A stretch of 64,000 nucleotides of DNA from Desulfuromonadales bacterium. GTDB taxonomy: Bacteria > Desulfobacterota > Desulfuromonadia > Geobacterales > Pseudopelobacteraceae. Under the pieces are notes generated by a model. The model saw only the letters and a list, made by a program, of their open reading frames with translations, made no database searches and was not told the DNA's origin. The stretch lies in NCBI GenBank assembly GCA_013349405.1, contig DUZS01000001.1, positions 124,001-188,000 on the forward strand, in the 5' to 3' direction. Position numbers and translations under genes: made by a program. Below are positions 35,771-48,065 of this stretch, piece by piece (the first letter of the stretch is position 1; each line of letters begins with the position of its first letter).

Positions 35771-38569
35771 CTACCACCCCTTTGACAGCAATTCCCTCAT
35801 ACTCACACTATTCAACACCGAAGCACACGTTTCCCAGTTTGCATCTTCCACCTTGCTGTATTTCACATCAAAGGGATTTCTGGTCGCAGAGGTCCGGTCA
35901 ATGAGTTGCCGTGCGGCCTGTTCGTCGTTGAGGGCCACCTGTACCCAGACATCTTCCAGCGTATCCGGGATCTGACCGAATAATTCATGGATAGCCTCAA
36001 GACGGTCTGCCAGCACCCGGTGAACCCGATCTTCAACCGAATCACGGTAGCGGAGATTTGCTATCCAGATTTCGCTGCGGGCCTGGCCGATGCGCTGGAT
36101 ACGTCCCTTGCGCTGCTCAAGCCGGGTTGGGTTCCAGGGAAGGTCGATATTAATGAGCGTACCGAGGCGTTGCAGGTTCAACCCTTCCGAAGCCGCGTCA
36201 GTACCGAGCAGTAGCTTCAGTTCGCCTCTGCACACCTGATCCTTGAGAACATTCCGGTCGCACCGCTGAAACTTGCCACCGCGCCAGAAACCTGAACGGT
36301 TGCTCCCGGCGTAGAGACCAATGTCCATTCCTGCAAATTCATGACGCTTTGCCAGTTCGTCACCAATCCAGTGCACCGTGTCATAATACTGGGAAAAGAG
36401 GATACAGCCAAGATCAAGCCAACGCAGTGATGTACCCGGTTGGGTACCGAGCAGATAACCGACCACCGCTTCCAGTTTCGGGTCGTTGTTACCGCCTTGA
36501 TGCAGAAGATTCAGACAGCGGCGCAGGGACGTCAATTCAGCCTCGCTAAAGTTTTTGAAGTCACCGGCACCTTGCGGCGGTCTTCCAACCTGCGCTGACG
36601 TCTCCTCTTCGGTATCGTCGTCATCTTCATCATTGGCAATGTCCGGTTCACCGCCGAGAAGTTTGGTGATGGTACTGCGACCAGCCTCCATCGAACTGCC
36701 GAGGCGTCGGAGGAGTAGCGTTTTGAAGAAGCCAGCACCCTGCACCCGTTGCTGGAGCAGGCGGGAAAACTCTTCCGCCTCCCGATACGCTTCCAGCAGG
36801 TATCCTCCCAGGATCAGGGCGCTTTCGTCTTCCTCGCCAAAAAGCTTTACCGTCACCTTCGGCAGAAAATAGCCACCGGTCAGCGGGTTGATCATCTCCT
36901 CAAGATACCCCCGCGTACGCCGGACTATACAGCGAAGTAGCGGGTTCAGACGTTCACCATATCCAGGCAGCAAACCATTTTTCAGTTGCACCTGCTTGAA
37001 TACCGGAGGCAGCAGGTCAAGCGTTTCAGGGGTGAACTGCCAGCGGCTGTCTTCGGCATTGAGCTTATTGCGTATTTGTTTCAATGTCGGATCTTCAAAA
37101 CGGGATGGCAGGGGATCGCTGACATACTGCCACCCCTCGCGGACATCATCGGCAGGAACCATGGCATTTCCTGTCGCAATGTCAAGGCAATGGCTGGGGC
37201 GATACCAGGGGCTGGTTTGAGTCCAATGAGCACCAAGCACACCGTCATTGCCGTGGGAAAGAATATGCAGCAGGTCCCATGCTTCCACCGGATGCAACTG
37301 CACCGGAGTTGCCGTTGCCAGCAGCATACTCTTGGTACGCGGGCCGATCAGACGCAGGAATTCCATCAGCTTGTTTGGGTCAGCCTTCTCGTCAATATCG
37401 TCGGCTGGAGCATCCACCCGTGGCACCTTGCGACGGCGGGCACGATGCGCCTCATCGACAATCACACAGGTATAGCGGCGACCGAGCAGCTGGCCGACCG
37501 CTTCTGATGTGCCACGCACAACCAACCCCTGCGATACCAGACCGATCCGGCGCGGGCATTTGCCGAGCGACCGCGCTCCATCCGATGGATACTCCAGATC
37601 ATGTTCATCCACCCAGGCGCGGCCATTCCAGCGGGCGGACGGCAGCAGAAGCAGCTCCATCAGTTCATCCTGCCACTGCTGGAGTAGCGGTTTAGGCGCA
37701 AGCACGAGGATCGGCCCGCCATCGGGATCATCAAGTGCCATCAGCATTGCAGCCATAGCAAGCTGGACGGTCTTGCCCAAACCGACCTGATCCGCAAGAA
37801 CCAACCGTGCCCCACCAAGCCGGTGACGCTCCAGCGCCAGCCGGGCAAAATATTTCTGATGCGGCCAGAGCCCCTGCTCACGGCGATACACCGGAGACTC
37901 TACGGCAACAGTAGCAGCGGCATCAGCAGGATTGGCAAGAGCCTGTAGCTCATCCGGTTCAATCACCCTGCGTGCGACAATACGCTGTACATCCTGGGCA
38001 ATGAATGGGCAGCAGGCCAGATCTATCGCACGCGGATCGTTCCAGAGAGCGTCAAACTCTTCCTGTACCCAGACAATGGACTCAGGGGCATCATCCTCCC
38101 AGAGCAACTCATAGTTTATCTCCCACGCCGAGGCGCTTTCGTTGACGCTGCCGAGGAAAGCCGTGGCAGAACCATCAGACCGGCGCACGACACCGGCTTT
38201 ACCATGAATAAGGCCAAAGGCAGCGTCAGGCAGCACCCGTATTTCAATCTTCTTGTTTATGAGAGCGTTGTAGAGCGCTTGATATCGTGGGATAGCGGCA
38301 GGCGGTGCTTCTTCCGGTTTCCCGGAACACCAGCTTCGACGGAGTGCCGCTTGTGCGGCGGCTGCCGTGGCAAGATCGTGCGGGTCAATATCCGAATTGC
38401 AGATGATCCGCACCGGACCGGCAACATTATTGATGGCCTCTCCAGCCACCTCAAACAGGCTGGAGCGAAAATATCCGGCAATGCGGTCGTAGGAGACGGC
38501 ACCTTCCAGGCGCTGATTGAGCACCGTGTGATCGAGACGGTTTCTGCGGCTGGAGTGGCGCTTTAACAT
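35771..38569 (-). CDS. PLD-SNF2 helicase of a defence system
   Basis: 932 residues. The N-terminal part (about 20-160) is a phospholipase-D-like domain with LIHGKAGV (His122, Lys124) and GSVNES (140-145); the Asp of a full HxKx4D is not evident. Then comes an SNF2-type superfamily 2 helicase: motif I DQVGLGKT (260-267), motif II DEAH (372-375), motif III LATATP (about 417) and, near the C-terminus, LEQRKGRIQRIGQ. It resembles PLD-helicases that accompany DUF1156/DUF499 proteins in predicted anti-phage systems. It is the last gene of the cluster and is separated from the methyltransferase gene by an 800-bp interval holding two opposite-strand genes. No obvious Shine-Dalgarno precedes ATG 38569. 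Confidence 0.85.
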   Translation of the reverse strand: MLKRHSSRRNRLDHTVLNQRLEGAVSYDRIAGYFRSSLFEVAGEAINNVAGPVRIICNSDIDPHDLATAAAAQAALRRSWCSGKPEEAPPAAIPRYQALYNALINKKIEIRVLPDAAFGLIHGKAGVVRRSDGSATAFLGSVNESASAWEINYELLWEDDAPESIVWVQEEFDALWNDPRAIDLACCPFIAQDVQRIVARRVIEPDELQALANPADAAATVAVESPVYRREQGLWPHQKYFARLALERHRLGGARLVLADQVGLGKTVQLAMAAMLMALDDPDGGPILVLAPKPLLQQWQDELMELLLLPSARWNGRAWVDEHDLEYPSDGARSLGKCPRRIGLVSQGLVVRGTSEAVGQLLGRRYTCVIVDEAHRARRRKVPRVDAPADDIDEKADPNKLMEFLRLIGPRTKSMLLATATPVQLHPVEAWDLLHILSHGNDGVLGAHWTQTSPWYRPSHCLDIATGNAMVPADDVREGWQYVSDPLPSRFEDPTLKQIRNKLNAEDSRWQFTPETLDLLPPVFKQVQLKNGLLPGYGERLNPLLRCIVRRTRGYLEEMINPLTGGYFLPKVTVKLFGEEDESALILGGYLLEAYREAEEFSRLLQQRVQGAGFFKTLLLRRLGSSMEAGRSTITKLLGGEPDIANDEDDDDTEEETSAQVGRPPQGAGDFKNFSEAELTSLRRCLNLLHQGGNNDPKLEAVVGYLLGTQPGTSLRWLDLGCILFSQYYDTVHWIGDELAKRHEFAGMDIGLYAGSNRSGFWRGGKFQRCDRNVLKDQVCRGELKLLLGTDAASEGLNLQRLGTLINIDLPWNPTRLEQRKGRIQRIGQARSEIWIANLRYRDSVEDRVHRVLADRLEAIHELFGQIPDTLEDVWVQVALNDEQAARQLIDRTSATRNPFDVKYSKVEDANWETCASVLNSVSMRELLSKGW

Positions 38570-38667
38570 GCAGGGATGAGCGATGAATTATGAAGTATGA
38601 AATGAAAAAACATGCGGCTGCTAACTCCCAGAGAACGATACCGTGACAGAATTGTTTAAAGAGGCGG

Positions 38668-38696
38668 TTGAAATTTATGCTTATTTCCCGTATAGT
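38668..38696 (+). promoter_or_regulatory. Promoter for a leaderless toxin-antitoxin-like transcript
   Basis: TTGAAA (38668-38673), 17-bp spacer, TATAGT (38691-38696). Only six bases (GACTCC) separate the -10 box from ATG 38703, so transcription should begin at or next to the A of the start codon. No Shine-Dalgarno is present, consistent with a leaderless mRNA. Confidence 0.65.
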
Positions 38697-38702
38697 GACT
38701 CC

Positions 38703-38894
38703 ATGAAAACTCAAACAATAGAACAAGAAAGTACCGTCCACAGCTTGAACGGCAAATTCAAGCTTGGTGCCCGCCCCCCCAGAAGATTGAGTGCGGCGGC
38801 GAGAAAACAGCTTGATGAGATGGTTCCTTCCGTCAAGGCTCGTGAGATGGCCGCCAGATTCGACCGATCTCAAGTGATTCGAGTCATTGAGTGA
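38703..38894 (+). CDS. Small antitoxin-like protein
   Basis: 63 residues from ATG 38703. The same frame is open from 38643, but those bases contain the promoter, so the shorter start is preferred. The C-terminal RRLSAAARKQLDEMVPSVKAREMAARFD looks helical and DNA- or protein-binding. Its stop overlaps the start of the GNAT-like gene (GTGA at 38891), the usual arrangement of type II toxin-antitoxin pairs. I do not recognise a family; antitoxin is inferred from context. Confidence 0.6.
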   Translation: MKTQTIEQESTVHSLNGKFKLGARPPRRLSAAARKQLDEMVPSVKAREMAARFDRSQVIRVIE

Positions 38895-39358
38895 TAAAAC
38901 TGGCGACGCTTTCCAGGGCGTCAGTTTATCCAGGGTCATTATCAAAACGGTTTCAGTATGCCGATGACGGTGAACGTCAGTATGTGGTGAAAACTGCGAA
39001 ATTTTCCACCAGGCAAAAAACCCGCATTCATCTGCTTTCCGACACATCGGGTAACGATTACGGTTTCGTTGCCCTTTCCATTTCCTCGTTCGACCAGAGC
39101 TATAACAGACCATCAATCGTTATTGACTACATCTTCACGTCTCATCAGTATCGCGGCCGAAAATTTCCCGAACTGGACAACACCACGGTGTTTGAATACC
39201 TGTTTGAGTTCACACTGCGGTCGGCACTATCCCTTCAGGAAATCGTCCCATTGCGGTTTATCGCCCTGCAACCTGCGCATGACCGGCTTGCCGCCTATTA
39301 CCAGAGAATCGGATTCAGCTTTATAGATACAAGCGGCTGGATGTTTATGAAACTCTGA
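38891..39358 (+). CDS. GNAT-like acetyltransferase, possible toxin
   Basis: 155 residues from GTG 38891, coupled to the upstream small gene. The core VIDYIFTSHQYRGRKF, FEYLFEFTLRSAL, RFIALQPAHDRLAAYYQRIGFSFI is the GNAT fold: motif A with QYRGR for CoA, and a typical C-terminal YYQRIGF. GNAT toxins of TA pairs acetylate aminoacyl-tRNA, but those usually have RHH antitoxins; here the partner is unclassified. It sits inside a defence operon on the opposite strand, converging on the methyltransferase gene end with a 14-bp gap. Confidence 0.68.
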   Translation: MIKLATLSRASVYPGSLSKRFQYADDGERQYVVKTAKFSTRQKTRIHLLSDTSGNDYGFVALSISSFDQSYNRPSIVIDYIFTSHQYRGRKFPELDNTTVFEYLFEFTLRSALSLQEIVPLRFIALQPAHDRLAAYYQRIGFSFIDTSGWMFMKL

Positions 39359-39372
39359 AATTTTCTGCCGCA

Positions 39373-42300
39373 TCAGTGATCGTTACGCAGGCGTCCGGCC
39401 AGGATACGGGCTGCTTCGGAGTCGGCAACCCATTCGTCCATTCCCACAGCGTTACTCAGTGCTGCAAGCCACTCCAACAGAGCAATGAACCGCTCCCGCT
39501 GTCCCCAGTATCCCTGACCAAAGGTGTCACGCAGATACTGACGCCCCTGTTCCGGGCTGTTGTCGGCGACACAGGTTTCCCGGATGGCGAACAACAGGTG
39601 ACGGAGTGGTGATGCGGCAAATGGGTGAGGTGCGCCAACGGCTGCATGCCCACGACCGGCAGGAAGTGAATCGCTGGTGATTCCTCCAACCGGGGCAAGT
39701 CCGGTGGCAGCAAAACCGCTCGGAACATGCATGCGGGCACCGTTGGCTTTGTCGCTCTTCAGCAGCGGGCGAATGTCGTTAACACCAAAACCGCGTGCCA
39801 GTTCTTCATACATCCCCTTGCGGCGTTCACCACGACTCTCGATATCAAGCGCCCGCAGGTAGTAGCGTTCCACCAGCGACAGGTCACGCCAGGAATTGTC
39901 CAGCCCTTTTGGGATAAGCGTATCGCAGGCAATGCCAAGGGCGCGCTCGATAACAGCCTGGAAATCGCTCTTCTCATTCCTGGCCCTCACGGCAAAAACC
40001 TCATGTTCAACATCGCGGCCATCAAGGGTGGAATAGTGGGTCAGCACTTTCAGTGCTGCTGCATAGGCCGCAAGTTGGTAGTCGGCATCATTGAAGTTCG
40101 GTTCGCCATCTTCGTCCAGCTCTTGCATGGAGGCGATCTGACGGCGCACTTCATCCTCCACCAGTGGGTAAACCTCGTCAAGGAAACCGGGTTCATCGAC
40201 AATTCGCTTGCGTAGGACCAGGCAAACTGTGCCTTGGACGTAGTTGCCTTTCTTGATGCCGGCAGCTTCAGTTTCGGTGCTGATGGTCCAGGCGGCAGTG
40301 GCTTTCAGTCCAGCAGCCCAGAGGATCATACCTAAATCTGCCCACACCGATGGGTCCTGATGGGTGAACATGACCATCTGCAAACCGTTATCCGGCATGT
40401 GGTTGGCAAGGTTGCGGTAGATTTCAACCATGGATCGTCGGAAGTCGTCGCCATCGCCCCGAACTGCAAGCTCCGCGCGGGCATCAGGTGTCCACTCGGG
40501 AAAGGCTTTTACCAGTTGCTTGTCGTACCAAGCGAGAAAGAAGTCGCCGAGTTCATGATAGTTCACTGCATCAGCGTAAGGCGGGTCCGTTATCCAAAGA
40601 TCGCAAACTTCGTTGAGGTCGCGTGCATCTGACGAAGCTACAACATGATTTTGTTGAGGAATATCTAAATGTTTTAAGTATGAAAATCCAGAAAGATTTT
40701 CTAAACCCGTAATAGATCGAACTCCCCAGTTAAGTAAAGTGTTGAGCGCTTGGTTGTAAAATGTCTGAGCAAAAGCACCTATTCCCCCACTGGCTGCTAA
40801 ATGAGGAAGCCATTGACAGAGCTTGGAATTCCAGTTACTACATGCCGCAATGCTAATTGCGCTAGCAACAATTTTATGTGGACTTTGCGTATCTGGGCCT
40901 TTAGCTAATTGCAGCATCAATCCGTGGACTAACAACTGTCTGGGGGTAAAAAGATGATGCCAATGCGTCCAACCACGTTCACGAAGAGGCTGTTCCGTAT
41001 TGTAACCGCTTATAATAGCCTTGGATGGGAGGTACCCCTCACTCTGCCAGGTTGTAAACCGCTCTTGCAAAATTTTTAGCACCTTTTCTTCGCGCTCAAG
41101 GTCGTCAGCATCTGGTGCTGCATAACGACGCACCAGTTTTGTTACCACTCGCCCCTGGGTATTAACCTCTGTCACCATCTTAGACCAACGAATGCAATAC
41201 AACCGCTCCTGAAAAACATCACCAAGGCGTGGTACCACATCCTCGTTGTTCCAACGGCGCAATCCTTCAGGTCCTCGTAGAGCTTCTATCGACCAGGAAC
41301 GGTTTGGGTCAAAGGGGTCAACTACTCGACTATCTACGGCAGTTTTCCCTTTACCTTCTTTATATTGTTTGAACTCCTCTTCAGATGCTTCAAAAACTTC
41401 GGCTTTTAGCCGGTCAGAACCAGAGACCTTTTTCCAAGTAACCACAATCCGGAATTTTTCTGATATAACCCAACTGGGAGCGAGTGGAATGAAGTAGTCA
41501 CATCCTTCCGGCCTTACTTCTTCACAATATAAAAAAGCTTCTGTTCGTTCATCTTGGTCATTGTGTTCAATTTTCCAGTCAGTGATCTGTTTGTCGGCAG
41601 CGGCGAAAACTTTCTCCTGTACTTGGCGAACCTCCTTCTGGACATCTTTGCTACCACCAAGCAGATTGATTGCCGCCCAAGTGAGCAGACAAGCAACAGG
41701 GTTGAGATCTGAGCCAAAAGACTCACAACCAATACGAGCCGCCTCAAAAGGAATGGAACCACCTCCGCAAAAACAGTCACCAACCTTTGGTGAGTGTCCA
41801 AAAGTACCCTGACCAAGCTGTTCTACGAGTTCTGGCAGACTGTTGGCCGTGGTGCCAAGATGAGAATTAATTTCAACCCAGGCAACCTCGCTGGGGCCGC
41901 TAACATTCTCAGGCCGGTCGCAGTGGGTGATCCGTTCTGCATAGCTCAAATCATCAAAGTCGGTCCGACTAGGTACTGGCCGACGACGTTGATCGTCAAG
42001 CGCTTTGCGTGCAGCATCATCCAGCGCCTCCCAAATTTGGGCACATACATCCTCTTTTTCTTCATCCGTCATCCCCTGCTTGAAGCCGCGAGCACCAAAA
42101 TATTCATCTCGAATTTCCGACGTGGCAGCTTCACGCCAGGAAGCAGCCGGTATTTCCCCCTTACATCGTTGCCAGACACCATCATCATCCATGGTTAGAA
42201 TCTTGAGAAAAATCTCCCTATCCTTCTTCGGGTTATCCGAGGTGGACATCAACATTCCTAGTATGGAAGCTCGAACGAGAATCAGCGGCTTACGCCCCCA

Positions 42301-42408
42301 CCATTTGCCAATCTTTGGTAATGTTTGACTAGAGGCCGCTTTGCGTTCCTTGTATGCCTCAGCAGAAAGACGTGCGATGGGGAACTGGGTTTCTATAAAA
42401 GCAGGCAT
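39373..42408 (-). CDS. DUF1156 DNA methyltransferase of a defence system
   Basis: 1011 residues. The start FPIARLSAEAYKERK...KWWGRKPLILVRASILG is the DUF1156 signature (adenine-specific methylase COG1743 family). Motif I is VGDCFCGGGSIPFEA (about residue 205-220) and the catalytic tetrad is DPPY (608-611, ITDPPYADAVNY). It would modify host DNA, probably on adenine. AGGA lies 7 bp before ATG 42408, 11 bp after the DUF3780 stop. The middle third (about 40620-42000) is clearly more AT-rich than both ends, suggesting mosaic origin. Confidence 0.9.
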   Translation of the reverse strand: MPAFIETQFPIARLSAEAYKERKAASSQTLPKIGKWWGRKPLILVRASILGMLMSTSDNPKKDREIFLKILTMDDDGVWQRCKGEIPAASWREAATSEIRDEYFGARGFKQGMTDEEKEDVCAQIWEALDDAARKALDDQRRRPVPSRTDFDDLSYAERITHCDRPENVSGPSEVAWVEINSHLGTTANSLPELVEQLGQGTFGHSPKVGDCFCGGGSIPFEAARIGCESFGSDLNPVACLLTWAAINLLGGSKDVQKEVRQVQEKVFAAADKQITDWKIEHNDQDERTEAFLYCEEVRPEGCDYFIPLAPSWVISEKFRIVVTWKKVSGSDRLKAEVFEASEEEFKQYKEGKGKTAVDSRVVDPFDPNRSWSIEALRGPEGLRRWNNEDVVPRLGDVFQERLYCIRWSKMVTEVNTQGRVVTKLVRRYAAPDADDLEREEKVLKILQERFTTWQSEGYLPSKAIISGYNTEQPLRERGWTHWHHLFTPRQLLVHGLMLQLAKGPDTQSPHKIVASAISIAACSNWNSKLCQWLPHLAASGGIGAFAQTFYNQALNTLLNWGVRSITGLENLSGFSYLKHLDIPQQNHVVASSDARDLNEVCDLWITDPPYADAVNYHELGDFFLAWYDKQLVKAFPEWTPDARAELAVRGDGDDFRRSMVEIYRNLANHMPDNGLQMVMFTHQDPSVWADLGMILWAAGLKATAAWTISTETEAAGIKKGNYVQGTVCLVLRKRIVDEPGFLDEVYPLVEDEVRRQIASMQELDEDGEPNFNDADYQLAAYAAALKVLTHYSTLDGRDVEHEVFAVRARNEKSDFQAVIERALGIACDTLIPKGLDNSWRDLSLVERYYLRALDIESRGERRKGMYEELARGFGVNDIRPLLKSDKANGARMHVPSGFAATGLAPVGGITSDSLPAGRGHAAVGAPHPFAASPLRHLLFAIRETCVADNSPEQGRQYLRDTFGQGYWGQRERFIALLEWLAALSNAVGMDEWVADSEAARILAGRLRNDH

Positions 42409-42419
42409 ATATATCCTCG

Positions 42420-43046
42420 TTACAGTGAGAGAGTCAGCTGGGAATGCCCAAGCAGTTCACGCCTGGCCTTGGGGGAGAGACCTTCGCCTTTGACAAAGGG
42501 ATTGTCAGCAATGGCCGCCCGGAGGGCTTTGCGCCAGCCGATCCCTTTCTGCATGGCCTGGCCAGTAGTCGCGATGGTCATGGTGAAGAGCCACCAGCGC
42601 TCTTCCGGGGCCAGTGCCTCCCAGTTATGCAGGGCGTTGGGAATGTCATCAGGTGAGGCATCTTCAACCGCCCAGCAGAGAATGCAGAGCTCCTTGCCAA
42701 GCGATGGATGCACCGGTACCGGCTTGCCGGGGTTCTTCTGAAACTTGGCAGCAGTCAGGCCATTAGCCCGCAGGCGGCGATTCGCTTCCTCCCAGAATGC
42801 CGGGGCCAGGGCGAGCCAGCGGAAACGATTTATGGCAACCCGCATTGAGGGGTCATTCGGTGAAGGGGGCGATACTGTGCGGGAGCCGAGGTCGTTGAGG
42901 TCATCACCCCGGTACTCGGTAACGCAGATAATGTCGTTGCCACCGTTGCCCTTGGGCACATCAATGAGAAAACCGTGGCGGGCCTCGTCCGGCAGAAAAC
43001 CGAGGCCGATAACTTTACGGGATGGGGATGTTGTGGTGCTTGCCAT
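42420..43046 (-). CDS. DUF3780 protein of a defence system
   Basis: 208 residues. The sequence GLGFLPDEARHGFLIDVPKG, NRFRWLALAPAFWEEANRRLRANGL and EERWWLFTMTIATTGQ matches the DUF3780 family, known as a companion of DUF499 and DUF1156 proteins in anti-phage-associated clusters. No catalytic motif is evident; it may be a structural or adaptor subunit. It starts three bases after the DUF499 stop and ends 11 bp before the methyltransferase start, so it is tightly co-transcribed. Confidence 0.82.
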   Translation of the reverse strand: MASTTTSPSRKVIGLGFLPDEARHGFLIDVPKGNGGNDIICVTEYRGDDLNDLGSRTVSPPSPNDPSMRVAINRFRWLALAPAFWEEANRRLRANGLTAAKFQKNPGKPVPVHPSLGKELCILCWAVEDASPDDIPNALHNWEALAPEERWWLFTMTIATTGQAMQKGIGWRKALRAAIADNPFVKGEGLSPKARRELLGHSQLTLSL

Positions 43047-43049
43047 GGC

Positions 43050-46000
43050 CTATTGCACCACCTTGGCAGGATTGAAGGGAATATTGTTGGCCCTGAGCCA
43101 GTCAAGCAAAGCCTGGCCGGTGGTGAAACCGAGCGAACCCACCGTCATCCGCAGGCCGCCGGCGCTGACAATCTCCTGGAGCTTTTCCGCCAGCGAACCG
43201 AGCGTCAGACCATCGTAGCCGCCGACAAGAGCGCCGGAATATTCTATGTTCTGATGGCCATCGCTGCTCTCGCCATTCAGGCTGATGTCGTAGGCACGTA
43301 CACCTGCAGCTTGACCGAGGCGTTGAATAAAATCCCACACCTCGCCGGTGTCATCAAGCCTGCTCTGGTGGTTCCAGCGAGCCGGAAGTGTCGGGTCCAG
43401 GGTACGTTCTTCCTGTCCCGGTTGCGGTATTTGTATGCGAGTCGTTTCGGAGTTCAGGTTATAGGCCGGGGCAACCGCCATGGCAGAGACAACCCGGCAG
43501 GTGACCGGTACCCGGAACCGCCCATCATAGGTGGCAAAACCGGCACTGGTGGGTGATGAACCGTCGGTCGTGTAGCGGATGACGATGCCATTGGTCTTTG
43601 GCAGCGCAAGCAGTTCAACTTCGTAATGATCGCCAAGGTTATGCAACTGGTGCTTGAGGCGGGGCTTGGCAGTCCATTCTTTTATTTCACTGACCCGTGT
43701 GGTATCGGCAGGATCAAAGGCCAGGAAACGATAGCGCAGCGCACTCGCTTCAAAACGGGTCGGTGTCGGCACCGGACTGGATGCAGGAGTTGGATCGGTA
43801 TCACCGGTTTCGTAGGCAACCGCAGGAGCATGGAGCGGCTCTATCTTCAAATACGTATACCCTTCACCATCTTCCTGAACAGAGAGGGGGCGAATTTCGA
43901 CCGTTGGATCAGGAGGGGGAAACGGTCCGCGCCGGATATAGTTACCCTCTTCCCGCCAAATGCCCCTTCTGACGCAATCGGCTTTCAGATCATCCAGGGC
44001 AGACGGTTTGTGAAGCTGCCAGTTGGTCAGTACCGCAGCGGTACGTTTGAAGTCGGCCCAGAGGATTACTTTGGTTTCTGCTGATCCGAAGAGCTTGGCT
44101 TCGGCCTTCATGCGGAAGGCGTCTTCGTCAATTTTCGTCGTAAACTTCTGAGCGTCCTCAAGAGTTTTACGGATAGTGGCTTCACCGTTCTGATTTCCGG
44201 CAAAGGCAAGAACGATACCGGTTGCCCGCAGTGCGGTGTTTATGGAAGGGTAGACGATCTGATCAAAGGCTTCTTTCAGAGCAGAGGTGAACTGCAGACC
44301 GACCCGGTCACGCAAGGCGTCCAGCGCCCGCCATTGCGGATCATCTGCGGGTGTGCCCTCAGACTTCAGATCATCTTCTATGCTTTGCAGTGCGCGGGTC
44401 TGCCGAGCTGAGTCTACTACTTTCTGAAACGTATCTTTTGACCCGGTGAGAAAGAGGATGCGATTTTTGTACTGCTGCTGTCCCCACCACGCCTGCCAGT
44501 CAGCCGGTATCGGCAGTTGATTGGCCAGTCCGCCGGGGCGGACAATTACCAGTGTGGTCTTTTCCTGCTCAACCTGCACCTGATCAAGTGGCGGCAACAC
44601 TTTTACGACCTGAAAACAATCCCGCATTGAGACGGAAAAGTATTGTTCAAGATGATCCCGAAGCATTCGGTCAACGGTTTCGGGATGCAGTGATTGGGCG
44701 GTGGAACGGAGCTTGGCGGCAAGGTTCTGCTGGTTCTTGAAAAAGAGCCGTCCATCTGCCGAGCTGTGCAGATACCAGGCGCGGACCGCCAACTTATCAA
44801 GCACATTGGCCTTGAAGGTGGAGAGATCACGACCGGGGCGCTGGAGGCAGTCTACGAGCTGATACTCCCGCAGGCCATGAATAGCGCCGGGAGTCGTTGA
44901 TAGCGAAGCTACCAGTATCAGGCGCGCGGCATCCGAGGCGTCTGAATTGCCATTGGCTAGGTCGATCTGCTCAACTTCCGCATCGCCACAGTGAGCGATA
45001 TCGTGGGCGATGGCCTCGCTGAGCGATGGGTTGATTGTCCGAATCTCGGAGGCTATCTCGTCCTGGTTCAAATCGATATCGTAGGGGTGGATCAACTCCA
45101 TACCTTTTGCTTTTTCAGTACGCCACAGGCTTGATACCACCATCTGCATCAGGCGGATAACGCCTCGTGTCTGCTGGAACCCTTCATTCTCCTTGAACTT
45201 GCCCACCAACTCGCGCAGATCGGGATGGAACGGGTAGGAATCGACGATTCTTGTATAGAGGGAGTCCGGCGTTGTCGTGGTGAGGTTCATACTGTTCGCT
45301 TCACGCAGCGCGTCCCGGTATGCGGAGGCAACCCGCTGAATTTCAACGTCTGGCGCAACATGCTCAAAGAGCCGCTTGCGCAGGATGTGGTACAGCTCAT
45401 CACCGTTCGGATTGACCGGAGTGATCGGGACAGCTATGCGACGAGCTTCGCCAGTGATTCCCTGAACGGCACGGTTGAAGGCAGACTCAAGGCTTGCCTG
45501 GCCGATGCTGAAATTGGAACCGGCCAGATCGGACAGCACCAGGCAGACGTTATCCATGTCGGCAACTGCAACAAACAGATTGGCGAGCGCTGTGGTTGTT
45601 ACAATACTGAGATCACCGTTACCGACCGGAACAGCGACGGCATATTCCAGATACGGCGGCAGCTCATCAAGGAAGAGGACAAGTGGATCACCACCAAGCA
45701 GCTGCTTCCATGCTTCCGGTCCCGGTGCCTGGAGGAGTGGCGAGATGTAGCGGGCAAACTGCTCTTCCTTGCCAAGCTGCTTTGCGATTGAACCCCAGAT
45801 GCCTCCTGCTTCATCAGTACTTCTGCCGTTGAACCCGACAACCCGGCAGCGGCCAAGCCGTGGTGCCGGGTCTTGCTCACCAAGGACCAGCTTCCGCAAC
45901 TCGGGATCACGCGCCAGCAATCCCACGGCAATCATGCTGTGAGTTTTACCGCCACCCATCGCCTGCGAGAGGAGAAAAACCGAAGAACCAGCCCCGACTC

Positions 46001-46181
46001 CGCCCAACTGCCGGAAGGCCCGCTCCACCAGTGTCGACATACCGTTGGTGAAATAGTTTTCTTCAAAAAACTCAGGCCCGTTTACCTGACCTTTCAGGAA
46101 TGTATCAAGGCTGAGAACGGTGGCTCTTCTATCGGCGGCAAAGACCGACTTGCGGGCTTTGCAGTGGGTGTGGAGGCTCAT
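43050..46181 (-). CDS. DUF499 AAA+ ATPase of a defence system
   Basis: 1043 residues and first gene of the minus-strand operon. Walker A is QAMGGGKT (73-80) and Walker B lies in PLVLFLDELPPYL (about 165-177), matching DUF499 (COG1483). The C-terminal region about 855-1040 includes a beta-sandwich-like piece (NGIVIRYTTDGSSP) and a terminal LDWLRANNIPFNP. This ATPase typically pairs with DUF3780, DUF1156 and a PLD or SNF2 helicase. AAAGGAC precedes ATG 46181. The promoter region is shared with the divergent XRE gene. Confidence 0.9.
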   Translation of the reverse strand: MSLHTHCKARKSVFAADRRATVLSLDTFLKGQVNGPEFFEENYFTNGMSTLVERAFRQLGGVGAGSSVFLLSQAMGGGKTHSMIAVGLLARDPELRKLVLGEQDPAPRLGRCRVVGFNGRSTDEAGGIWGSIAKQLGKEEQFARYISPLLQAPGPEAWKQLLGGDPLVLFLDELPPYLEYAVAVPVGNGDLSIVTTTALANLFVAVADMDNVCLVLSDLAGSNFSIGQASLESAFNRAVQGITGEARRIAVPITPVNPNGDELYHILRKRLFEHVAPDVEIQRVASAYRDALREANSMNLTTTTPDSLYTRIVDSYPFHPDLRELVGKFKENEGFQQTRGVIRLMQMVVSSLWRTEKAKGMELIHPYDIDLNQDEIASEIRTINPSLSEAIAHDIAHCGDAEVEQIDLANGNSDASDAARLILVASLSTTPGAIHGLREYQLVDCLQRPGRDLSTFKANVLDKLAVRAWYLHSSADGRLFFKNQQNLAAKLRSTAQSLHPETVDRMLRDHLEQYFSVSMRDCFQVVKVLPPLDQVQVEQEKTTLVIVRPGGLANQLPIPADWQAWWGQQQYKNRILFLTGSKDTFQKVVDSARQTRALQSIEDDLKSEGTPADDPQWRALDALRDRVGLQFTSALKEAFDQIVYPSINTALRATGIVLAFAGNQNGEATIRKTLEDAQKFTTKIDEDAFRMKAEAKLFGSAETKVILWADFKRTAAVLTNWQLHKPSALDDLKADCVRRGIWREEGNYIRRGPFPPPDPTVEIRPLSVQEDGEGYTYLKIEPLHAPAVAYETGDTDPTPASSPVPTPTRFEASALRYRFLAFDPADTTRVSEIKEWTAKPRLKHQLHNLGDHYEVELLALPKTNGIVIRYTTDGSSPTSAGFATYDGRFRVPVTCRVVSAMAVAPAYNLNSETTRIQIPQPGQEERTLDPTLPARWNHQSRLDDTGEVWDFIQRLGQAAGVRAYDISLNGESSDGHQNIEYSGALVGGYDGLTLGSLAEKLQEIVSAGGLRMTVGSLGFTTGQALLDWLRANNIPFNPAKVVQ

Positions 46182-46227: not shown

Positions 46228-46261
46228 TTGAACTAATGCAAAATACACATTATAGATGTGT
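46228..46261. promoter_or_regulatory. Divergent promoter with palindromic operator
   Basis: On the plus strand TTGAAC (46228-46233), 17 bp, then TATAGA (46251-46256) faces the XRE gene. On the minus strand the same spot reads TATAAT (46254-46249) facing the DUF499 operon. Both -10 boxes lie within the palindrome ACACATTATAGATGTGT (46245-46261). A regulator bound here would block both directions. Confidence 0.6.
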
Positions 46262-46328
46262 TATACAACAGAAACAGCTATCAAATGATGAGGTATTATG
46301 AGAAGGAGTGCTTTGTTATGATGCCGTC

Positions 46329-46688
46329 ATGCCAACGGACATCATCACAACCAGAGAAATCGGTGCAGTTATCAGAAAGAGGAGGAATGAACTCGGTCTT
46401 TCGCAGGAACAGTTGTCAGAAAAAGTAGGGGTTTCGTATCAGCAGATTCAAAGGTATGAAAACGGCGGCAGTATGCTCAATGTAGAAAATGTTCAGCGTA
46501 TCGCCAAAGCCCTGGCAATTCCGGTAACCTCATTTTTTGATTCAGGCAGCGTCACCGGAGTTGCTGAAACGGGAACGGGGTATTCATCAGTTGAAGAGAA
46601 GAGACTTCTTCGATTTTTTCGGGATCTGGCTGCGCGATCTGACAGACTGTTAGCAACCAGTGTTGTTCGAAGACTTTCAAAGAAATAG
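46329..46688 (+). CDS. XRE-family transcriptional regulator
   Basis: 119 residues from ATG 46329, or 126 from GTG 46308; neither has an ideally placed Shine-Dalgarno (AAGGAG lies at 46303-46308), so the start is uncertain. Residues about 10-65 are a Cro/C1 helix-turn-helix (IRKRRNELGLSQEQLSEKVGVSYQQIQRYENGGSMLNVENVQRIA). It is divergent from the defence operon and likely binds the palindrome at 46245-46261, regulating itself and the operon. Confidence 0.88.
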   Translation: MPTDIITTREIGAVIRKRRNELGLSQEQLSEKVGVSYQQIQRYENGGSMLNVENVQRIAKALAIPVTSFFDSGSVTGVAETGTGYSSVEEKRLLRFFRDLAARSDRLLATSVVRRLSKK

Positions 46689-46800: not shown

Positions 46801-46838
46801 AGTATACTGTCGTATACTATCGCATAAAGTAGTATACT
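46801..46838 (+). promoter_or_regulatory. Three GTATAC boxes before the AAA ATPase gene
   Basis: AGTATACT (46801-46808), GTATACT (46812-46818) and AGTATACT (46831-46838) lie within 38 bp, directly before the ribosome-binding site (CAGGTG) and ATG 46860. TATACT also fits a -10 box, so the repeats may combine promoter and operator. Confidence 0.5.
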
Positions 46839-46859: not shown

Positions 46860-48065
46860 ATGGACAAAATCAAGAACCCTTTTTCTCCGGGAGCAGGATC
46901 ACCACCACCAGAGTTGGCAGGTCGTGACGGCATTTTAGAGCAGGCGCATGTTTTGCTCGGTCGTGTCCGCCTGAAACGGCCAGAGAAAAGCATATTGATG
47001 ACCGGGTTGCGTGGAGTCGGCAAGACGGTACTGCTTAACGAGATGGAGCGGATGGCGATTGCCGACGGGTATCGGACTATCCTTGTAGAGGCCCACGAGG
47101 ACAAGCCACTCGCATTGCTGCTTGTACCGCACGTGCGCCGGATTCTCTTTGACCTCGACAGGATTGCCGGTGCCGGAGACAAGGCTCGTCGCGGTCTTGC
47201 GGTGCTCAAAAGCTTCATTGGCGGCATTAAGATAACGGTCGGTGATGTCGAGTTCGGTCTGGATACTGATCCGGAAAAGGGTGCCGCTGATAGCGGTGAC
47301 CTGGAGATTGACCTTGCCAATCTATTTGTCGCCGTAGCAGAGGCTGCGGAAGAGCGTCACACATCCGTGGCTATTCTTATAGATGAGATTCAATATCTTA
47401 ATGCCACTGAATTGAGCGCCCTGATAATGGCCATGCATAAAATGCAACAGCGCCAGCTTCCCCTGGCGTTGATTGGAGCCGGCTTGCCGATTCTCCCCGG
47501 CTTGGCGGGTGATTCTAAATCGTATGCCGAACGTCTTTTCAGCTTTCCCGATATCGGCCCACTTGCAGAAGCGGAAGCGGCCAAGGCGCTCAAAGATCCC
47601 GTGGCTGCAGCTGGCGAACTGTTTGATGATGAGGCAATTACGGAGATTTACCGGTTGACGCAGGGATACCCTTACTTTCTTCAAGAGTGGGGGTATCAAT
47701 CATGGAACCATGCCGCGGCTTCTCCCATAACCCTCAAGATTATTGAGGAAACAACAACTCTTGTGGCACGTCGCCTCGATGAAAATTTTTTCCGGGTGCG
47801 CTTTAATCGCCTTACCCCACGAGAAAAAATGTATCTGCGAGCTATGGCAGAATTGGGTTGTGGACCGTATCGGACCTCTGATATAGCTGATTTTCTTGGC
47901 GTGAAAATTACAACCCTTGGTCCGGTACGGGCAAGTCTCATCAAAAAGGGGATGATTTACAGCCCCTCACACGGAGATATGGCTTTTACCGTGCCACTAT
48001 TCGATCAATTCATGCTGCGTGCCATACCTGAACTGGAATTCACAGTGAGTCTCCGTAACCGTTAA
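46860..48065 (+). CDS. AAA family ATPase with C-terminal winged-helix-like domain
   Basis: 401 residues. Opening NPFSPGAGSPPPELAGRD and Walker A GLRGVGKT (about 49-56), Walker B AILIDEIQYL (about 171-180) and a C-terminal HTH-like part (MYLRAMAELGCGPYRTSDIADFLGVK) resemble the archaeal-ATPase/AAA_16 type STAND-like proteins common in accessory DNA. It may be part of the defence island or a separate TA or regulatory unit. It follows the XRE gene by 171 bp of AT-rich DNA with GTATAC repeats. Its target is unknown. Confidence 0.83.
   Translation: MDKIKNPFSPGAGSPPPELAGRDGILEQAHVLLGRVRLKRPEKSILMTGLRGVGKTVLLNEMERMAIADGYRTILVEAHEDKPLALLLVPHVRRILFDLDRIAGAGDKARRGLAVLKSFIGGIKITVGDVEFGLDTDPEKGAADSGDLEIDLANLFVAVAEAAEERHTSVAILIDEIQYLNATELSALIMAMHKMQQRQLPLALIGAGLPILPGLAGDSKSYAERLFSFPDIGPLAEAEAAKALKDPVAAAGELFDDEAITEIYRLTQGYPYFLQEWGYQSWNHAAASPITLKIIEETTTLVARRLDENFFRVRFNRLTPREKMYLRAMAELGCGPYRTSDIADFLGVKITTLGPVRASLIKKGMIYSPSHGDMAFTVPLFDQFMLRAIPELEFTVSLRNR

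What the first reader, a model, noticed from the sequence alone, without database searches (positions are those of the whole stretch)
46228..46261. One palindrome holding -10 boxes for both the XRE gene and the defence operon
ACACATTATAGATGTGT contains TATAGA on the plus strand and TATAAT on the minus strand. A bound XRE dimer would shut both promoters. This predicts tight, switch-like control of the defence genes, possibly relieved on infection.
Basis: seen in the sequence. Interest (0 to 1): 0.55.

Follow-up and report, generated by a model that had tools for sequence, protein, structure and literature searches.

The report
Repressor switch beside a defence operon
A small DNA-binding protein gene sits back to back with a set of anti-phage genes, and comparison with relatives suggests that the protein represses those genes through this site while its own gene starts from a separate promoter further along, so the palindrome is probably a real switch but not one for both genes.

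Summary
The sequence is as described: ACACATTATAGATGTGT at 46245-46261, TATAGA on +, TATAAT on -. As a palindrome alone it is no more than chance (27.5% of shuffles hold one as good). Sixteen XRE genes (this one included; 44-70% identity to it) change the picture. All 16 have a TACA half-site 84-87 nt upstream of the XRE start codon. Fifteen of 16 carry an extended -10 (TGnTAnnnT) 6-7 nt before the ATG and at no other gap tested. That predicts a leaderless XRE mRNA (here TATGAT 46317-46322, ATG 46329), not a start from the palindrome. On the other strand 13 of 16 have TTG 17-18 nt from a -10 that begins in the half-site, so the operator lies in the divergent promoter's spacer. Best reading: an XRE dimer represses the Type-2 BREX-related (DUF499) operon, while XRE's own promoter lies about 55 bp beyond the palindrome. 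"Shuts both" is not supported; "relieved on infection" is untested. In relatives the same cassette also heads type III, IIG-like and DrmD-like operons. It works like a restriction-modification controller protein but fails a defining feature.

The parts
46244..46260 (.).
   Evidence: TACA at 84-87 nt before the XRE ATG in 16 of 16; full site perfect in 5 of 16 and at least 8 of 10 in 12 of 16; coordinates
46240..46268 (-). Predicted promoter of the defence operon in the conserved register: -35 TTGTAT (46268-46263), 17 nt, -10 TATTTT (46245-46240); predicted start about 46233
   Evidence: Register is top of 108 on the minus strand (mean 8.19; all registers 4.4, sd 0.72); TTG at 17 or 18 nt in 13 of 16. 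Only 7 of 12 matches here
46249..46277 (-).
   Evidence: 8 of 12 matches here; register ranks 4th of 108 over the family; fits TA...T in 2 of 16
46314..46322 (+). Predicted XRE promoter: extended -10 TG-T-TATGAT, 6 nt before the ATG (leaderless start)
   Evidence: Same motif at gap 6 in 13 of 16 and gap 7 in 2 of 16; 0 of 16 at all other gaps 0-24; in controls 1 of 21 at gaps 4-9
46278..46298 (+). Conserved boxes CTATCAA (46278-46284) and GGTATTA (46292-46298, family GGTAGTT) between operator and XRE -10; function unknown (a second XRE site is possible)
   Evidence: Upstream alignment; coordinates
46329..46688 (+). XRE (HTH_3) regulator gene, 119 aa, start ATG 46329
   Evidence: Pfam HTH_3 E=1.9e-18; start set by relatives
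43050..46181 (-). DUF499 ATPase, first gene of the operon; AAAGGA lies just upstream of its ATG
   Evidence: NCBIfam 728 bits, under the 1200 cut-off
42420..43046 (-). DUF3780 protein
   Evidence: Pfam E=5.9e-39; NCBIfam under cut-off
39373..42408 (-). DUF1156 methyltransferase
   Evidence: NCBIfam 1250 bits, over cut-off
35771..38569 (-). PLD-helicase; cut off from the rest by a + strand gene pair at 38643-39358, so possibly outside the switch
   Evidence: NCBIfam 1162 bits, over cut-off

Best explanation
The palindrome is most of the operator of the XRE protein. An XRE dimer bound at 46244-46260 covers the spacer and the start of the -10 of the divergent promoter and keeps RNA polymerase off the DUF499-DUF3780-DUF1156 operon. 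The XRE gene is not transcribed from the palindrome: it uses an extended -10 (46314-46322) placed so that the mRNA starts at or next to the ATG (46329), a leaderless message. The operator lies at -85 to -69 from that start, so a dimer there does not cover the XRE promoter. The operon would stay low until XRE is titrated, absent (as on entry into a new host) or inactivated. Shown by comparison: place of the XRE start and promoter, of the half-site and of the divergent promoter. Inferred: dimer binding, repression, sign of the effect. Unknown: the inducing signal.
For: 16 XRE genes compared: TACA half-site at 84-87 nt before the ATG in 16 of 16, extended -10 at gap 6 or 7 in 15 of 16 and at no other gap 0-24, TTG at 17 or 18 nt in 13 of 16 against 0-2 of 16 at each other spacing from 8 to 30; conserved minus-strand register top of 108; the motif near the ATG in only 1 of 21 other XRE genes, the nearest relative among them; HTH fold close to DNA-bound repressors and controller proteins; divergent R-M-type operons in several relatives.
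Against: No expression or binding data. This XRE is beside a BR system only here: 13 of 277 genomes have the XRE, 3 of 277 have DUF3780, one has both. Several relatives have no defence gene opposite. Conserved boxes at 46278-46298 might be a second XRE site near its own promoter. Rows are related: G023 and L060 are near copies and L057 is close, so independent lineages are perhaps 10-12.
Confidence: 0.6

Rival explanations
1. One reading: one palindrome carries both -10 boxes and one bound dimer shuts both the XRE gene and the defence operon.
For: TTGAAC-17-TATAGA and CTGTTT-17-TATAAT are in the sequence, 8 of 12 each; the - register ranks 4th of 108 over the family; the closest relative G100 has TTGTTT and TAATAT in the - register.
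Against: XRE has its own conserved extended -10; the + register fits TA...T in 0 of 16 and ranks 14th of 139; no promoter listed there by the scan.
Confidence: 0.07
2. XRE is a two-way regulator like a C protein: it represses the operon and, from its site at -85 to -69 or through the conserved boxes at 46278-46298, activates or tunes its own gene.
For: The region from the operator to the ATG is conserved, including CTATCAA and GGTAGTT-type boxes; the -35 of the XRE promoter is poor; nearest folds are C proteins, which first activate and then repress (PMC4824078, passages).
Against: No second copy of the TACAC-N7-GTGTA site was recognised near the XRE promoter; an extended -10 needs no activator (recalled knowledge).
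Confidence: 0.15
3. XRE is an incidental neighbour and does not control the BR operon; the operator here is decaying.
For: The pairing is seen once; several relatives lie opposite unrelated or unassigned genes; the right half-site is degenerate here.
Against: XRE and its promoter are intact; the half-site at the operon's -10 is perfect (TACAC); head-to-head placement with different R-M-type operons recurs.
Confidence: 0.13

Closest known systems
Controller (C) proteins of type II restriction-modification systems (C.BclI, C.AhdI, C.Esp1396I, C.Csp231I)
   Same: Small HTH_3 protein, best fold match C.BclI; regulator gene beside a restriction-type operon; leaderless regulator mRNA, described as common for C.PvuII and C.EcoRV types (PMC4824078, passages), predicted here.
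   Different: Divergent gene; site in the target's promoter, not in its own; site TACAC-N7-GTGTA instead of GACT-type or CTAAG-N5-CTTAG C-boxes; 119 aa against 66-77 residues in the C-protein chains.
BrxR, regulator of a type I BREX system
   Same: A DNA-binding regulator gene beside a BREX-type operon (PMC9122589, abstract and outline).
   Different: BrxR is a wHTH-WYL-WCX protein that binds upstream of its own transcription start; here only an HTH_3 domain is found and the gene is divergent.
Lambda-type phage repressors (lambda CI, P22 c2, 434)
   Same: HTH sequence and fold likeness; operator over a divergent promoter; the lambda cI message from PRM is leaderless (recalled).
   Different: One recognised operator rather than a set; no peptidase-type C-terminal domain found; no second, Cro-like repressor gene opposite.
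CapH of CBASS
   Same: XRE-type defence regulator; weak hit E=4.6e-6.
   Different: The next gene downstream is an AAA_16 ATPase, not a CapP peptidase.

Membership tests
Type-2 BR (BREX-related) system | DUF499 ATPase, DUF1156-type N6-methyltransferase, HKD/PLD-helicase and standalone DUF3780 in one locus (PMC12839542) | tested here: met
   All four present; DUF499 and DUF3780 fall under the NCBIfam cut-offs but over the Pfam ones
C (controller) protein | Small HTH_3 protein of the C-protein fold | tested here: met
   C.BclI best fold match and second-best sequence-profile match; PADLOC Control_protein E=2.2e-7
C (controller) protein | C-box in the regulator's own promoter | tested here: not met
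   The site lies at -85 to -69 from the predicted start; the boxes at 46278-46298 are untested as binding sites
C (controller) protein | Regulator gene in tandem with the REase gene (typical, not universal: PMC4824078 describes separate promoters) | tested here: not met
   XRE is divergent from the operon
C (controller) protein | Leaderless regulator mRNA | tested here: inconclusive
   Predicted from the -10 position in 15 of 16; no start mapped
BrxR (WYL) | WYL domain | tested here: not met
   Only HTH families among the Pfam hits
CapH-CapP pair | CapP peptidase gene next to CapH | tested here: not met
   The next gene is an AAA_16 ATPase
Divergent HTH repressor of a neighbouring operon | Binding to the operator and repression | not testable with these tools
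   Needs gel shift and transcript measurements

The most novel reading that the evidence does not exclude
A portable control cassette, an operator set inside a divergent promoter plus a leaderless XRE gene, has been placed head to head with at least four unrelated restriction-type operons (Type-2 BR, type III, IIG-like, DrmD-like with MTase_III) in Geobacterales and kin. It would be a general-purpose delay or dose controller that makes new defence systems tolerable on arrival: a divergent counterpart of C proteins that is not tied to one enzyme type.
Probability: 0.35. Interest if true: 0.58.

Novelty: new member of a known kind. Interest (0 to 1): 0.38.

Why it matters
The one paper found on DUF499-centred (BR) systems holds neither 'XRE' nor 'repressor', so their control looks little studied. 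The comparison gives exact start sites and an operator to test, corrects the proposed two-promoter switch, and points to one repressor-promoter cassette reused with several unrelated restriction-type operons. If true, how newly acquired defence systems are kept in check could be tested with one simple two-reporter design.

Tried and rejected
Regulon search: TACAC-N7-GTGTA with up to 2 mismatches gives 567 sites per strand in the genome against 865 for the reversed control, so no sign of a wider regulon. Mobile home: relatives in plasmids, phages and viral contigs are distant; none in plasmids or phages covers 80% of the query, and the 13 viral loci have 29-48% identity. GTG 46308 as XRE start: rejected, because it overlaps the AAGGAG at 46303-46308 and stop codons lie close upstream of the ATG in several relatives. 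Excess of R-M neighbours over other XREs: not shown. Clear R-M-type genes directly opposite in 5 of 16 (G000, G100, G087, L057, G126), weaker in 2 (G161, HSDR_N under the Pfam cut-off; L060, HsdM fourth in the run). Control: 5 of 22 loci (16 have a divergent ORF, 10 of these were scanned). The divergent ORFs of 5 of the 16 (G049, G023, G052b, G054, G114) were not scanned. Paper searches (listings only) gave nothing on this regulator.

The nine other loci (32-48% identity) were left out. L009 (43% identity) also shows the architecture but missed the cut and stands among the controls. The 22 controls are loci L009-L030, weaker hits, not all of its hits; L014 had no start found and the start of L018 is doubtful. 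In one search the half-site was taken as the TACA nearest 85.5 nt within 79-95 nt, which favours a constant distance and fixes TA of the -10, with ties broken towards 85, 15 of 16 fall at 84-88 nt and G027 at 93. Alone, the best-site score beats shuffles poorly in some rows (G049 0.96, G027 0.95, G052a 0.42, G054 0.36).

Full report
What is there. The 17-mer ACACATTATAGATGTGT lies at 46245-46261, between an XRE gene (+) and a defence operon (-). The operon fits the Type-2 BR (BREX-related) systems of PMC12839542 (passages read): DUF499 ATPase, DUF3780, DUF1156 methyltransferase and PLD-helicase (DUF499 and DUF3780 under the NCBIfam cut-offs). TATAGA (+) and TATAAT (-) are present as stated. 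The palindrome alone is not unusual: 27.5% of 2000 shuffles of the 147-nt gap hold one as good. It is the only exact ACACAT-N5-ATGTGT in the assembly.

Relatives. A search of 277 genomes of the class found 14 places in 13 genomes, the own one included, at E <= 1e-25. Two more came from a contig scan. These 16 upstream regions were compared. At 44-70% protein identity (L060 62%) kept non-coding DNA is informative, though some rows are near copies and the independent lineages are perhaps 10-12.

XRE's own promoter. TGnTAnnnT ends exactly 6 nt before the ATG in 13 of 16 and 7 nt before in 2 of 16; at every other gap from 0 to 24 the count is 0 of 16. The exception is G114. Among 21 other XRE genes whose start was found, it occurs once at gaps 4-9, in L009, the next-closest relative. 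A -10 six nt before the ATG puts the start at about the A of the ATG: a leaderless message. Here this is TG-T-TATGAT, 46314-46322, and ATG 46329; the nearest SD-like AAGGAG (46303-46308) is 20 nt away. The same gap occurs at a second gene of the window (TTGAAA-17-TATAGT, ATG 38703).

Operator and divergent promoter. TACA stands 84-87 nt before the ATG in 16 of 16; it is TACAC in 13, TACAT in 2 and TACAA in 1. TACAC-N7-GTGTA is perfect in 5 of 16 and at least 8 of 10 in 12 of 16; in the other four (G049, G052a, G027, G054) the right half is weak. On the minus strand TTG stands 17 nt (10 of 16) or 18 nt (3 of 16) from a -10 that begins in the half-site (TAT in 14 of 16), and at each other spacing from 8 to 30 in 0-2 of 16. 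The operator thus lies in the spacer of the divergent promoter.

Mechanism. Most likely is plain repression: an XRE dimer occludes the operon promoter, and XRE comes from a separate leaderless promoter whose -10 lies about 55 bp beyond the palindrome. Binding, dimer state, sign and inducer are inferred. Conserved boxes at 46278-46298 could be a further XRE site, so tuning of its own gene is not excluded. The model (pLDDT 77, pTM 0.53) has a confident HTH core; its nearest solved folds are C.BclI and other controller proteins, phage repressors and further HTH regulators.

Neighbours. The gene opposite differs: DUF499 operon (G000); DrmD-like helicase in two pieces plus MTase_III (G100); methyltransferase plus REase_III-like (G087); type III Mod and Res, Mod starting some 340 nt from the XRE ATG (L057); IIG-like methyltransferase plus S (G126, L094); a weak HSDR_N protein (G161); a run with a nuclease and, fourth, HsdM (L060); a nuclease homologue (G052a; G023 by likeness to L060); GGDEF (G027); no family hit (G125, G025); and four not scanned (G049, G052b, G054, G114). 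Other XREs of these genomes are also often opposite R-M-type genes (5 of 22 loci, partly scanned), so the habit is broader than this clade and no excess is shown. XRE and DUF3780 occur together only in G000 (13 and 3 of 277 genomes). In G099, another Type-2 BR locus, a different small ORF precedes DUF499 (L091:6111-6416, no PADLOC hit).

Comparison with what is known. It works like a controller protein and shares fold and probably the leaderless message, but the site is not in its own promoter and the gene is not in tandem with the operon (PMC4824078, passages), so it is not filed as one. It is not BrxR-like (PMC9122589, abstract and outline). The paper searches showed no description of this regulator (listings; passages for PMC12839542 and PMC4824078).

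Verdict. The sequence claim is right, the palindrome alone is not significant, the operator role is supported by comparison, 'both promoters' is not supported, and relief on infection is untested. It is an ordinary kind of switch with one appealing wider reading: a portable control cassette for restriction-type operons.

Noticed in passing
38643-39358 (+): Two small + strand ORFs, by eye a toxin-antitoxin-like pair (the second GNAT-like; no family hit, the first not scanned), sit between the methyltransferase and helicase genes, so the helicase may need its own promoter.
   Followed up: partly
38668-38705 (+): TTGAAA-17-TATAGT ends 6 nt before an ATG (38703): a second likely leaderless start in the window.
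   Followed up: partly
46802-46838: About 3.7 copies of a 10-bp GTATAC-rich unit just upstream of an AAA_16 ATPase gene (46860-48065); perhaps the operator of another regulator.
   Followed up: no
L023, L025, L026, L028, L029, L030 (upstream of the XRE genes): Control XREs, most of them opposite R-M-type genes, have leaders that fold into a hairpin (-11 to -15 kcal/mol) right before the start codon; seen in 6 of 6 folded, picked by eye.
   Followed up: partly
L043:1570-4536: The DrmD-like helicase opposite the XRE in G100 is read as two separate ORFs, so it may be broken, or the assembly has an error.
   Followed up: no
46278-46298: Conserved CTATCAA and GGTAGTT-type boxes between operator and XRE -10, of unknown role.
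   Followed up: partly
L060, L046, L045: Staphylococcal-nuclease homologues lie on the divergent strand near the XRE in three relatives (hits for L060 and L045; L046 by sequence likeness).
   Followed up: partly
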